Source: Sulfurimonas sp. (lineage in GTDB: Bacteria > Campylobacterota > Campylobacteria > Campylobacterales > Sulfurimonadaceae). From it: DNA of 33,525 nt. The notes under the pieces are model-generated. The model was given only the letters and a program-made list of their open reading frames with translations. It was not told where the DNA came from and made no database searches. Numbering within the stretch: position 1 is the stretch's first letter; each line of letters begins with the position of its first letter. The position numbers were made by a program, and so were the translations under genes. This document shows, piece by piece, positions 9,363-11,600 of the stretch. Location of the stretch: contig NZ_JADGFC010000014.1 in the NCBI RefSeq assembly GCF_016744025.1, positions 1 to 33,525 of the forward strand, in the 5' to 3' direction.

Positions 9363-9719
9363 ATGTGTTTATTTTGCAAAATAGTAAATAAAGAAATACC
9401 TTCAAATGTTATTCTAGAAGATGATAATTTTATCGCTTTTCACGATATTAATCCAAAAGCTCCTGTTCATATATTAGCAATACCAAAAGTACATGTTGAT
9501 AGTTTCAATGAAGTTACTCCAAAGATTATGGCTGGCATGACAGAATTCATTCAAAATGTTGCACAAGAAGTAAACATACAAGAGAGTGGTTATAGAGTAA
9601 TTACAAATATTGGAGATAATGGCGGTCAAGAAGTAAAACACTTACACTTTCATATTCTTGGTGGCGCTAAATTAAAATGGGACCATTTCACTGATGCAGA
9701 TCCAAAAGGGCACTTCTAA
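9363..9719 (+). CDS. HIT-family nucleotide-binding hydrolase (HinT-like)
   Basis: HIT proteins of this branch hydrolyse adenosine phosphoramidates or related nucleotides, including aminoacyl-adenylates. The 118-residue product starts MCLFCKI, typical of the HinT group, and ends with the triad HLHFHILGG (His93, His95, His97); the middle histidine is the expected nucleophile. Length matches the family. A Shine-Dalgarno AAAGGA precedes the ATG. It is divergent from pheS, as I recall for HP0404 in H. pylori, and the lytic transglycosylase gene follows after 2 nt. The natural substrate is unknown. Confidence 0.92.
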   Translation: MCLFCKIVNKEIPSNVILEDDNFIAFHDINPKAPVHILAIPKVHVDSFNEVTPKIMAGMTEFIQNVAQEVNIQESGYRVITNIGDNGGQEVKHLHFHILGGAKLKWDHFTDADPKGHF

Positions 9720-9721
9720 AT

Positions 9722-10909
9722 ATGATTAAAAAATTAGTCATTGTTACTTATCTAACTTCAACTCTTTTAGCACAGAGTGCTCAAGACTTTAAGACTCAAC
9801 AGATGCAAGAGTTCAATAAAGAAAAAAAACAGTTTGGCTTTTATAAAAAAAGTCAAACACAAGAGTTTGATGCATACCAAAAAGCACAAGATAAAGTCTA
9901 TAAAGATTATAAAAAAGAACTTGGCGTTTTTTGGGATGAACCAAAAATCTCTACTAAAAAAAAATGGGTATCTTATACTCAAGATAAAAAAACTAGAACT
10001 GATGTAGATTTTTCTAAAGAAACTATTACAATAGAAACAATCGCTTCATCTCCCAAAGAGGCAAAACAAAAACTTCAAATAGCTCTGGCAAAAGTTGTAA
10101 CTATAGATACAAAGAGTGTTCAAGAAACAGATCCTTTAGAAAAAAAGATTGCACAAATAAAAAAACCTGAGGGTGTTGTTATTTCAGATGTAAAAGCAGA
10201 ACCAATTTTATCCACTATTGTATTTAAAAAAGAACCTACACAATCAAGCGTAAAACATTATGTAAATAAATATATTAAAAATGAAAATATAAAAACTAAA
10301 AACTCACAAAAAATAAAACATGCAAAAATCTATTCGGTTAAAGTCGATTTACCAAAAGATACAATGATTAAAAGATCAAGAATCTACTATGATGAAGTGA
10401 AGAAAAATGCTAGATTGCAAAAACTTCCAATGGCTTTAATTTTTGCTATTATGCATACAGAGAGTAATTTCAATCCAAGAGCAAGATCACATATACCTGC
10501 TTATGGACTAATGCAAATTGTGCCAAAAACTGCTGGTATAGATACATACAAATATTTGTATAAAAAGAAAAAATTAGTATCTGGAAGTTATTTATATAAT
10601 AGTTCAAATAATATTAAAATGGGTACTGCCTATCTTCATATACTATACTATAAGTATTTAAAAGATATAAAAAATCAAGATACTAAGTTATTTTGTACTA
10701 TTGCAGCTTACAACACTGGTGCTGGAAACATAGCATGGGCATTTACAAAAAATCATAATATGAAAAAAGCAGCACCATTGATTAATAAAAAATCACCTAA
10801 TGAAGTTTATAATAAGCTTTTGAGAGATTTACGTTATGAGGAGCCAAAGCACTATTTAAAAAGAGTTTCTAAAAGAATGAGTGCTTACTACAAAATTTAC
10901 GGTATTTAA
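9722..10909 (+). CDS. MltC-like lytic murein transglycosylase
   Basis: Lytic transglycosylases cleave the MurNAc-GlcNAc bond of peptidoglycan to form 1,6-anhydroMurNAc ends. The 395-residue product has a signal peptide (about residues 1-20, cleavage likely near AQSA/QDF), an MltC-type DUF3393 region with coiled-coil character (about 23-190), and a C-terminal SLT domain from about 220. In that domain the catalytic glutamate is Glu247 in HTESNFNP, followed by GLMQIVPKTAG and AAYNTGAGN. Unlike E. coli MltC there is no lipobox cysteine at the signal-peptide end, so it should be soluble in the periplasm. It lies 2 nt after the HIT gene and ends just before a strong terminator. The name mltC is by similarity only. 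Confidence 0.9.
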   Translation: MIKKLVIVTYLTSTLLAQSAQDFKTQQMQEFNKEKKQFGFYKKSQTQEFDAYQKAQDKVYKDYKKELGVFWDEPKISTKKKWVSYTQDKKTRTDVDFSKETITIETIASSPKEAKQKLQIALAKVVTIDTKSVQETDPLEKKIAQIKKPEGVVISDVKAEPILSTIVFKKEPTQSSVKHYVNKYIKNENIKTKNSQKIKHAKIYSVKVDLPKDTMIKRSRIYYDEVKKNARLQKLPMALIFAIMHTESNFNPRARSHIPAYGLMQIVPKTAGIDTYKYLYKKKKLVSGSYLYNSSNNIKMGTAYLHILYYKYLKDIKNQDTKLFCTIAAYNTGAGNIAWAFTKNHNMKKAAPLINKKSPNEVYNKLLRDLRYEEPKHYLKRVSKRMSAYYKIYGI

Positions 10910-10923
10910 TTTATTTATAGGAC

Positions 10924-10951
10924 AAACTCTAAAAAATACTTTTAGAGTTTT
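10924..10951. terminator. Bidirectional intrinsic terminator between the transglycosylase and the microprotein genes
   Basis: Arms AAACTCTAAAA (10924-10934) and TTTTAGAGTTT (10940-10950) form a perfect 11-bp stem with a 5-nt loop. The hairpin lies 15 nt after the transglycosylase stop on the plus strand, and on the minus strand it includes the stop codon of the small gene at 10929-11045. The stem is AT-rich with T-tracts on both sides, so it can end transcription in both directions. Confidence 0.75.
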
Positions 10952-11045
10952 CTCCCCACTCTCTTTTTTGGACAGTATATGAAAACTCATATGCTATGAT
11001 TATCAATACTGCTGTTGCCACTAACACTGTCGCCATTTCTATCAT
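10929..11045 (-). CDS. Small single-pass membrane protein, 38 residues (microprotein)
   Basis: I do not recognise a family. The minus-strand frame reads from ATG at 11045 to TAG at 10931-10929. Residues 5-18 (ATVLVATAVLIIIA) form one transmembrane helix, followed by an amphipathic tail with the aromatic and basic pattern YEFSYTVQKREWGE. The start is supported by AAGGA placed 7 nt upstream, and a second in-frame ATG follows at codon 4. The gene lies 90 nt downstream of the OsmC-family gene and its stop codon sits within the terminator hairpin. Size and layout resemble small accessory subunits of membrane complexes, but the partner cannot be told from sequence. The gene could be read through from argH-osmC or use its own promoter. 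Confidence 0.6.
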   Translation of the reverse strand: MIEMATVLVATAVLIIIAYEFSYTVQKREWGENSKSIF

Positions 11046-11072: not shown

Positions 11073-11086
11073 TATTCTATAGAATA
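11073..11086. repeat. 14-bp perfect palindrome upstream of the microprotein gene
   Basis: TATTCTATAGAATA reads the same on both strands and lies 28 bp before the microprotein ATG. It could be an operator for a dimeric regulator or overlap a -10 element (TATAGAAT). AT-rich palindromes also occur by chance at this base composition. No regulator is named from it. Confidence 0.3.
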
Positions 11087-11135
11087 AAATCAATAAATGT
11101 AAAAAAAATGGCAATTTGTCATGGAATTTTAAAAA

Positions 11136-11600
11136 TTAAGATGGACAGCTCTCTACTTCACCCATATCAATGTTTGATCCACCACCTGAAATCATCTCTT
11201 CGTTTTCACGAATTAGTTTTGAATTATGCGTTATAGAGTATGTGATAGCAGTAGTATCACGGATAGTATTTATAGTAGAACAATAAGTTTCTAAAGATGC
11301 CATAACCCAACGAGCAGCCATAGTATCATCAGCATCTGAGTTAAAACTATATGTTAGATGCAAGGTATTAAACTTACAAGGGTGAGCTTCATTTCTTACA
11401 ACTTCACCATCTACAACTAAGTCAGTAACAATTTTATCTTGATTCTTTGGTATCAATATAATATCTGTTGCACTACATGTAATAATTGAAGACAAAAAAT
11501 ACTCTATTGGAGAGATAACAGGACAATCAATTATAAAACTACTTTTTGAAGTTTTAGCTTCAAACTTCATGCCATCTTGATGTGTAATACTTACTTTCAT
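11136..11600 (-). CDS. OsmC/Ohr-family thiol peroxidase-like protein
   Basis: OsmC-family proteins reduce organic hydroperoxides with a pair of cysteines. The 154-residue product has the expected pair at Cys42 (SIITCSATDI) and Cys107 (LETYCSTINT), in the usual alpha/beta dimer fold; the length is slightly above the typical 135-145. Further cysteines are at 26, 75 and 152, and the last 15 residues (GGGSNIDMGE then VESCPS) form an extra tail. The start follows the strong leader AAATTAAGGA. It is downstream of argH by 117 bp and is followed by the microprotein gene. The actual substrate, peroxide or sulfur compound, is not evident. Confidence 0.85.
   Translation of the reverse strand: MKVSITHQDGMKFEAKTSKSSFIIDCPVISPIEYFLSSIITCSATDIILIPKNQDKIVTDLVVDGEVVRNEAHPCKFNTLHLTYSFNSDADDTMAARWVMASLETYCSTINTIRDTTAITYSITHNSKLIRENEEMISGGGSNIDMGEVESCPS

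What the first reader, a model, noticed from the sequence alone, without database searches (positions are those of the whole stretch)
10929..11045. Unannotated 38-residue membrane microprotein gene
A short frame with a good Shine-Dalgarno, one clean TM helix, an aromatic and basic tail (YEFSYTVQKREWGE), and a stop codon built into a strong terminator. All of this agrees with a real gene that size cut-offs would miss. The position after an OsmC-type peroxidase gene suggests a stress or membrane-complex role, but nothing identifies the partner.
Basis: seen in the sequence. Interest (0 to 1): 0.5.

Follow-up and report, generated by a model that had tools for sequence, protein, structure and literature searches.

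The report
DNA-damage-linked membrane microprotein in Sulfurimonas
A tiny 38-residue membrane protein gene overlooked by size cut-offs is real, and the DNA switch in front of it is the same one that sits in front of DNA-repair genes, so it is probably made when the cell's DNA is damaged, perhaps to hold back cell division.

Summary
The ORF is real; it lies on the minus strand (11045-10929) of a Sulfurimonas-type genome. I recognised orthologues at the same locus in 32 of 135 genus genomes and in two other genera of the family, with a conserved start, helix and KREWGEN..FF tail. Across 32 coding sequences pN is 0.28 and pS 0.65; pN<pS in 495 of 496 pairs. In 33 of 40 relatives lacking it the flanking genes leave no room. 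The steady neighbour is HIT, not OsmC.
New: at 11122-11108 lies a palindrome (type ATGACA-N3-TGTCAT), found at >=12 of 14 in 21 of 34 orthologue promoters (0.06% of shuffles), with the -10 box exactly 28 nt downstream in 16 of 19. The same module precedes recA, recN, radA, comM, a Y-family polymerase, DNA methylases and a CI-type S24 (LexA-like) repressor. So the gene belongs to an SOS-like regulon in a group described as lacking LexA. Best guess: a damage-induced membrane effector, most likely a SidA-type division inhibitor (inferred, not shown). Its WGEN tail recurs in unrelated phage, plasmid and chromosomal microproteins.

The parts
10929..11045 (-). 38-aa single-TM microprotein gene (ATG 11045-11043, TAG 10931-10929)
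   Evidence: orthologues, purifying selection, one predicted helix
11051..11057 (-). Shine-Dalgarno AAGGAAG
   Evidence: read in sequence; purine-rich SD-like stretch in orthologues
11074..11079 (-). -10 box TAGAAT, exactly 28 nt after the operator
11098..11103 (-). -35-like TTTACA
   Evidence: 10 of 12 consensus together with the -10; a -35 of >=5 of 6 at this offset in 8 of 19 microprotein promoters, but a -35 anywhere in only 4 of 40 other operator promoters
11108..11122 (.). 15-bp palindromic operator ATGACAAATTGCCAT (minus strand), same type as in front of the S24 repressor and DNA-repair genes
10924..10950 (.). A+T-rich hairpin that contains the stop codon; possible weak bidirectional terminator
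   Evidence: not found
10932..10967 (-). codons of the conserved tail KREWGENSKSIF (WGEN tail)
   Evidence: W30, G31, E32 and F38 invariant in 26 orthologues
9363..9719 (+). HIT-family gene, constant neighbour of the locus (name by reading)
9722..10909 (+). lytic-transglycosylase-like (SLT) gene, convergent; present or absent between relatives (name by reading)
11136..11600 (-).

Best explanation
A translated, N-out/C-in single-pass inner-membrane microprotein that belongs to a DNA-damage (SOS-like) regulon. A CI-type S24 repressor (HTH plus LexA-like self-cleaving peptidase) binds the palindrome just upstream of the promoter; on DNA damage RecA filaments trigger its self-cleavage and the gene is expressed together with repair genes. 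The peptide then acts in the membrane, its conserved Y-E end of the helix and cytosolic KREWGEN..FF tail docking on a larger membrane machine, most likely the divisome (SidA-like checkpoint), delaying division during repair. Shown by computation: gene, selection, helix, operator, shared promoter geometry, regulator candidate. Inferred: who binds the operator, that it represses, induction by damage, topology. Guess: the divisome target. My separate estimates: real gene 0.98; member of the operator's regulon 0.85; S24 protein is the binder 0.75; damage-inducible 0.7; division inhibitor 0.35.
For: Gene. Operator: 21 of 34 orthologue promoters score >=12 of 14 against 0.06% of dinucleotide shuffles, centre 61-76 nt before the start. 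-10 exactly 28 nt after the operator in 16 of 19 microprotein promoters and 25 of 40 other operator promoters. Own genome: seven sites with <=1 mismatch to ATGACAANTTGTCAT; beside them this gene, the S24 repressor, radA, a Y-family polymerase, an N6-methylase-like gene, an ORF6N-like gene, and one site some 370-380 nt before a HicA/HicB-like pair. Genus: exact palindrome in 93 of 135 genomes, reversed control in 5 of 135; of 50 such loci (30 returned by the tool, 20 picked by me) 42 have an identified gene start within 300 nt (comM 12, XerD-type recombinase 7, radA 4, recN 4, Dam-like 3, N6-methylase-like 3, C5-methylase 2, SPOR-like 2, repressor 2, recA 1, polY 1, this gene 1), 8 do not. Repressor: Peptidase_S24 plus Phage_CI_repr; SAGGG, GDSMEP and FIKR invariant in 30 copies; 17 of 30 repressor promoters hold a >=12 of 14 operator, single-base shuffles 0 of 600. 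No WYL-domain regulator in the own genome, control rings in 7 of 14 genomes.
Against: 13 of 34 orthologue promoters lack a >=12 match and 8 of these score 9 or less, so the gene can persist without a good operator. 13 of 30 repressor promoters score only 10-11, a level that 12% of 100-nt shuffles reach at >=10. I found the gene in only 32 of 135 genus genomes, so it is dispensable. The fixed 28-nt spacing is more typical of an activator than of a free-standing repressor; the sign of regulation is untested. Genomes without a repressor match can still carry the operator (e.g. G122 and G085, two sites each). Nothing here links the peptide to FtsW/I/N. No expression or translation data.
Confidence: 0.45

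Rival explanations
1. TisB-like effector: a damage-induced membrane peptide that lowers the proton motive force or permeabilises the membrane, slowing growth or favouring dormancy; no specific protein partner.
For: Size, single TM, SOS-like operator; WGEN-tailed peptides on phages and plasmids would fit toxin-like peptides.
Against: The most conserved part is the tail, with invariant W, G, E and terminal F, and pN is well below pS, which points to a specific contact. An antisense control RNA was not looked for beyond Rfam on the window, which found nothing.
Confidence: 0.2
2. Stabilising subunit of a constitutive membrane complex (CydX/CioY/KdpF type); the operator only tunes expression.
For: One-helix microproteins are often such subunits; precedent CioY in Campylobacter (PMC11955535, passages).
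Against: I see no respiratory or transport gene beside it; patchy presence; operator of a DNA-repair regulon.
Confidence: 0.15
3. The palindrome is bound by another, activating factor (DriD/PafBC-like logic) and the S24 gene is just one more target.
For: Exactly fixed 28-nt distance to the -10; a -35 match in only 4 of 40 operator promoters outside the microprotein. DriD is a WYL activator on a pseudo-palindrome (PMC12340889, passages).
Against: No WYL protein in the own genome; the S24 gene is widespread (181 of 298 order genomes at E<=1e-30, own genus and family included) and 17 of 30 of its promoters carry a strong operator; Campylobacterota promoters usually lack a -35 box (recalled).
Confidence: 0.2
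4. Competence/recombination regulon rather than SOS: the operator marks DNA-uptake and recombination genes, and the peptide serves uptake or a competence-linked division delay.
For: comM is the most frequent target (12 of 50).
Against: Y-family polymerase, recA and an S24 repressor with the residues for self-cleavage are in the set; these are SOS hallmarks (recalled).
Confidence: 0.15

Closest known systems
SidA of Caulobacter (29-aa SOS-induced division inhibitor acting on FtsW; PMC4211646, passages)
   Same: Size, single inner-membrane helix, SOS-type operator
   Different: Other phylum, other regulator family; sequences not compared; target here unknown; conserved WGEN tail
DidA of Caulobacter (71 aa; PMC4211646, passages) and YneA/SosA of Firmicutes (PMC13396833, PMC6851548: search listing only)
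   Same: Damage-induced small membrane division inhibitors
   Different: Longer; other regulators (DidA: DriD) and hosts
TisB (E. coli, SOS-controlled membrane peptide; recalled)
   Same: Tiny membrane peptide under SOS control
   Different: No WGEN tail known to me; antisense control not tested here
CioY of Campylobacter jejuni (34 aa, CioAB oxidase subunit; PMC11955535, passages)
   Same: One-helix microprotein of the same phylum
   Different: No oxidase genes seen beside this locus
Non-canonical LexA of Bacteroidetes (CI-type S24 SOS repressors; PMC8565304, passages)
   Same: CI-type HTH plus S24 peptidase with Ala-Gly, Ser, Lys conserved, controlling repair genes
   Different: That paper reports its family as exclusive to Bacteroidetes; an operator given there is CTAA-N5-TTAG

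Membership tests
SOS-induced small-membrane division inhibitor (SidA type) | short protein with one TM helix | tested here: met
   (prediction)
SOS-induced small-membrane division inhibitor (SidA type) | operator of the DNA-damage regulon in its promoter | tested here: met
   (in silico; binding not shown; 13 of 34 orthologue promoters lack a strong match)
SOS-induced small-membrane division inhibitor (SidA type) | induced by DNA damage | not testable with these tools
   no expression data
SOS-induced small-membrane division inhibitor (SidA type) | blocks division through FtsW/I/N | not testable with these tools
   needs genetics
canonical LexA (for the regulator) | LexA winged HTH (PF01726) plus S24 domain | tested here: not met
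   Peptidase_S24 with Phage_CI_repr, no LexA HTH at E<=1e-5
CI-type S24 SOS repressor (Bacteroidetes-like logic) | Ala-Gly bond, Ser and Lys conserved; own promoter and repair genes carry the operator | tested here: met
   (17 of 30 own promoters at >=12 of 14)
CI-type S24 SOS repressor (Bacteroidetes-like logic) | RecA-dependent self-cleavage | not testable with these tools
   needs biochemistry
CydX/CioY-type oxidase subunit | encoded with cydAB/cioAB | tested here: not met
   neighbours read
type I toxin (TisB/Hok/AapA kind) | antisense RNA or translational control RNA | not tested
   only Rfam on the window, no hits
known protein family (Pfam, NCBIfam, PHROGs, PDB) | match above cut-off | tested here: not met
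   (only weak matches, best NCBIfam E 0.039 for an orthologue, 14 bits against a cut-off of 94)

The most novel reading that the evidence does not exclude
Campylobacterota, described as lacking LexA, have an SOS response run by a CI-type S24 repressor on a 7-1-7 palindrome at fixed promoter distance, and its Sulfurimonas branch carries a new SidA-like checkpoint microprotein. Its WGEN tail is a docking motif for a common host membrane target that phages, plasmids and conjugative elements also exploit with their own unrelated WGEN-tailed microproteins.
Probability: 0.25. Interest if true: 0.82.

Novelty: new variant of a known kind. Interest (0 to 1): 0.62.

Why it matters
It gives a microprotein without any known family a regulon and hence a testable job, and it points to an SOS-like response with its own operator and regulator in a bacterial group whose best-known members (Campylobacter, Helicobacter) are described as having no LexA (PMC2390758, passages). 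A shared tail among chromosomal, phage and plasmid microproteins would mark a common membrane target worth finding.

Tried and rejected
OsmC/peroxide-stress role: rejected as argued, the neighbour is not constant. RNA or DNA element disguised as ORF: rejected, third-position synonymous changes and pN below pS; no Rfam match in the window. Arrest peptide controlling a downstream gene: rejected, the next gene downstream is convergent. Known family: none. WGEN in a ~290-aa protein found by the profile: a different, larger protein, treated as chance. WGEN-tailed peptides sharing the operator: of 16 such genus or family loci outside the core locus the best score was 11 of 14; the viral ones were not tested. 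REWGEN in viral contigs gave no microprotein (0 of 19 distinct frames), against 6 of 49 for RKWGEN and 0 of 73 for three permuted controls (Fisher p 0.0035); the criterion was set after seeing the first two pattern scans, so this test is not blind. Orthologues beyond the family: none recognised in a sample of 298 order genomes at E<=0.1 (weak hits partly read). A KREWGEN DNA pattern over 84,980 species gave 25 hits, 13 this gene, in records titled Sulfurimonas or Epsilonproteobacteria or (two) just 'bacterium'; the other 12 are frames of other kinds; the pattern fixes some codons, so it misses orthologues. Co-occurrence of repressor and operator across genomes was looked at by eye only, weak and confounded by completeness, not used.

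Literature: no report of an SOS regulon in Sulfurimonas, or of this operator, in searches of the held library (subscription papers are missing). Of their hits I read passages of PMC2390758, PMC6452273, PMC6511836, PMC11424552, PMC12710356, PMC10092268, PMC3234257, PMC10500605 and PMC6684075; the other hits I saw as listing only. PMC11424552 mentions S24 LexA-like proteins in Campylobacter fetus, there discussed with prophages.

Rows dropped before counts: the frameshifted L028 and the contig-edge L029 (32 of 34 used); rows with under 200 residues (57 of 71 kept; 22 of 31 with the gene, 35 of 40 without); of 40 gene-less genomes (chosen by me around HIT, so HIT is there by construction), in 33 the matches of HIT or SLT end 0-140 nt from those of OsmC/ArgH; 2 have extra DNA between and 5 show other or no neighbours in the stretch fetched. 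The output listed only part of its matches; one search used 50 loci of those, L284 and L308 being the same place, and one of the 7 XerD rows (L296, 35 nt) looks like a fragment. In one search the -10 motif also occurs at offset 21 in 8 of 19 microprotein promoters. The broadened half-site comparison has no shuffle control.

Full report
What is there. It sits between an OsmC-type gene (11600-11136, minus) and convergent HIT and SLT genes (plus).

It is a gene. In 135 genus genomes tblastn gives 46 with E<=1; 31 of these (E<=3.3e-5) are orthologues at the same locus, one more (G039, E 0.03) is placed by synteny; the others are weak, and those I read are unrelated. A profile search gave 93 of 135 at E<=1, but among its weaker hits I recognised no further orthologue (not all were read). 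Two more lie in other genera of the family, G155 and G143, both at the same locus; none was recognised outside the family in a sample of 298 order genomes. Of the 34, one (G044) is frameshifted before the tail and one (G105) is cut by a contig end; 33 start with ATG, one with GTG. Over 32 coding sequences mean pN is 0.280 and mean pS 0.649, with pN<pS in 495 of 496 pairs. In 26 aligned orthologues M1, Y19, W30, G31, E32 and F38 are invariant, and the WGEN codons vary at third positions. AlphaFold gives one helix, residues 2-31, mean pLDDT 80.2. A short acidic N-terminus and basic C-side suggest N-out, C-in (inference).

Locus and history. HIT is found in 29 of 30 orthologue loci, OsmC in 20 of 30, so OsmC is not the defining neighbour. 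I fetched the HIT locus of 40 genus genomes without a match: in 33 the HIT or SLT match ends 0-140 nt from the OsmC or ArgH match (226 nt between the genes in the window), and the filter (SD, hydrophobic, 25-70 aa) shows no candidate ORF between them; 2 have extra DNA there and 5 show other or no neighbours. On a tree of 57 loci (22 with, 35 without) presence needs 15 changes, at least 6 forced by well-supported branches; shuffled labels need 17.8 on average and 41 of 500 are as low. The gene is thus a patchily kept unit that always lies at one place; repeated loss of an old gene is the simplest reading, but the tree cannot tell gain from loss.

The operator. Upstream of the gene, at 11122-11108, is a near-perfect palindrome ATGACAAATTGCCAT. 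Of 34 orthologue promoters 21 reach 12 of 14 matches to ATGACAA-N-TTGTCAT within 100 nt, against 0.06% of dinucleotide shuffles, with the centre 61-76 nt before the start; 5 score 10 and 8 score 9 or less. The exact palindrome ATGACANNNTGTCAT occurs in 93 of 135 genus genomes, the reversed control in 5. Of 50 such loci (30 returned by the tool, 20 picked by me from its list), 42 have an identified gene start within 300 nt: comM/YifB 12, XerD-type recombinase 7, radA 4, recN 4, Dam-like 3, N6-methylase-like 3, C5-methylase 2, SPOR-domain-like 2, the S24 repressor 2, recA 1, Y-family polymerase 1, this gene 1. Names for the S24 protein, recA, recombinase, Y-family polymerase, comM and (in part) recN and radA rest on Pfam; the others (Dam, C5-methylase, N6-methylase, SPOR, HicA/B, ORF6N) on reading, and the N6-methylase-like protein had no Pfam match at E<=1e-5. 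In the own genome there are seven sites with at most one mismatch to ATGACAANTTGTCAT: this gene, the S24 repressor, radA, the Y-family polymerase, the N6-methylase-like gene, an ORF6N-like gene, and one some 370-380 nt before a HicA/HicB-like pair. With up to two mismatches there are 30 sites against 12 for the control, so many of the weaker sites are noise.

Promoter geometry. The -10 box starts exactly 28 nt after the operator in 25 of 40 regulon promoters and 16 of 19 microprotein promoters, as in the window (TAGAAT 11079-11074). This shared spacing is the strongest sign that the microprotein belongs to the regulon. A -35 of at least 5 of 6 is seen in 8 of 19 microprotein promoters (offset 4) but in only 4 of 40 others. 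The fixed spacing leaves open whether the bound factor represses or activates.

The regulator. Two operator loci carry, 65 and 73 nt downstream, a 219-aa protein with Peptidase_S24 and Phage_CI_repr domains. A match at E<=1e-8, paralogues included, is found in 123 of 135 genus genomes; the own genome has nine matches, the best 79% identical, at C182. In 30 aligned copies SAGGG, GDSMEP and FIKR, the expected cleavage site, serine and lysine, are invariant. Of their 30 promoters 17 hold an operator of at least 12 of 14 (single-base shuffles 0 of 600) and 13 score 10 or 11, which is not rare by chance. With a broader half-site definition (no shuffle control), sites of at least 11 of 12 are found in 23 of 24 repressor promoters and in 19 of 24 microprotein promoters of the same genomes (misses G107 on the repressor side, G044, G116, G107, G048, G059 on the microprotein side). 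Relatives of the protein occur in 181 of 298 order genomes, own genus and family included. Of 14 repressor loci in the set (11 in other genera or families by handle where stated, plus closer ones), most carry a similar palindrome upstream, some too near the start to be the same element. A WYL-domain activator of the DriD/PafBC kind is absent from the own genome.

Comparison with print. Epsilonproteobacteria including Campylobacter and Helicobacter are stated to have no LexA orthologue (PMC2390758, passages). In Bacteroidetes a CI-type S24 family runs the SOS response and was reported as exclusive to that phylum (PMC8565304, passages). I found no paper on an SOS regulon of Sulfurimonas or on this operator in searches (passages of nine hits read, others as listing). 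Damage-induced small membrane proteins are known elsewhere: SidA, 29 aa, acts on FtsW, and DidA, 71 aa (PMC4211646, passages). The likeness is one of size, topology and regulation; no sequence relation was tested.

How it most likely works. Shown by computation: gene, selection, helix, operator, promoter geometry, candidate regulator. Inferred: S24 binding, damage induction, topology. Guessed: target. A conserved tail favours a specific protein contact over mere membrane disruption, and holding back division is the job of the best-studied damage-induced small membrane proteins. I put that at 0.35.

A wider pattern. Other small ORFs in the family end a helix with [KR]x-WGEN: after an AAA/RepA-like gene (L065, L070-L072, L111, and L109 in a variant form), between a sulfite/nitrite-reductase-like gene and a CorA-like gene (L066-L068; L069 near CorA), beside plasmid-, conjugation- or phage-like genes (L062, L103, L108, L113, L120), and elsewhere (L110, L117) (neighbours named by reading). 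In viral contigs 6 of 49 distinct RKWGEN frames are such microproteins, 0 of 19 REWGEN frames and 0 of 73 frames of three permuted controls (Fisher 0.0035; criterion set after the first scans). Of the 16 genus or family ones tested none carries a strong copy of this operator. A common membrane target is one reading; convergent basic-aromatic tails is another.

Noticed in passing
L062, L065-L072, L103, L108, L110, L111, L113, L117, L120 (genus/family); L126, L139, L151, L160, L167, L173, L179, L191 (viral contigs): Unrelated microproteins that share a [KR]x-WGEN tail after a TM or amphipathic helix, often beside phage-, plasmid- or conjugation-like genes (neighbours named by reading).
   Followed up: partly
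L310:1590-2246 and G000:C182:3128-3784: A CI-type S24 repressor with relatives over much of the order (181 of 298 sampled genomes) and the operator in its own promoter in many; looks like the SOS regulator of a group described as LexA-less.
   Followed up: partly
L283, 91 nt after the operator at 1501-1515: Another small hydrophobic ORF (25 aa, good SD) directly behind the same operator, without a WGEN tail, in a 70%-complete genome (G027) where no copy of the 38-aa gene was found.
   Followed up: no
L267, L276, L279, L298, L299, L302: XerD-type recombinases whose start lies 159-162 nt behind the operator, much farther than the 65-75 nt of most other targets; integrase-like genes under the damage operator.
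   Followed up: no
L346 (G000:C118), sites 224 and 1335: Operator-like sites (one mismatch) before a HicA/HicB-like pair and before an ORF6N-like gene in the own genome.
   Followed up: no
L028: Orthologue with a frameshift that removes the WGEN tail and without a good operator: a gene apparently decaying, or an assembly error.
   Followed up: no
window 9722-10909: The SLT gene between HIT and the microprotein is itself present or absent between relatives; the spot looks like a gain/loss hotspot.
   Followed up: no
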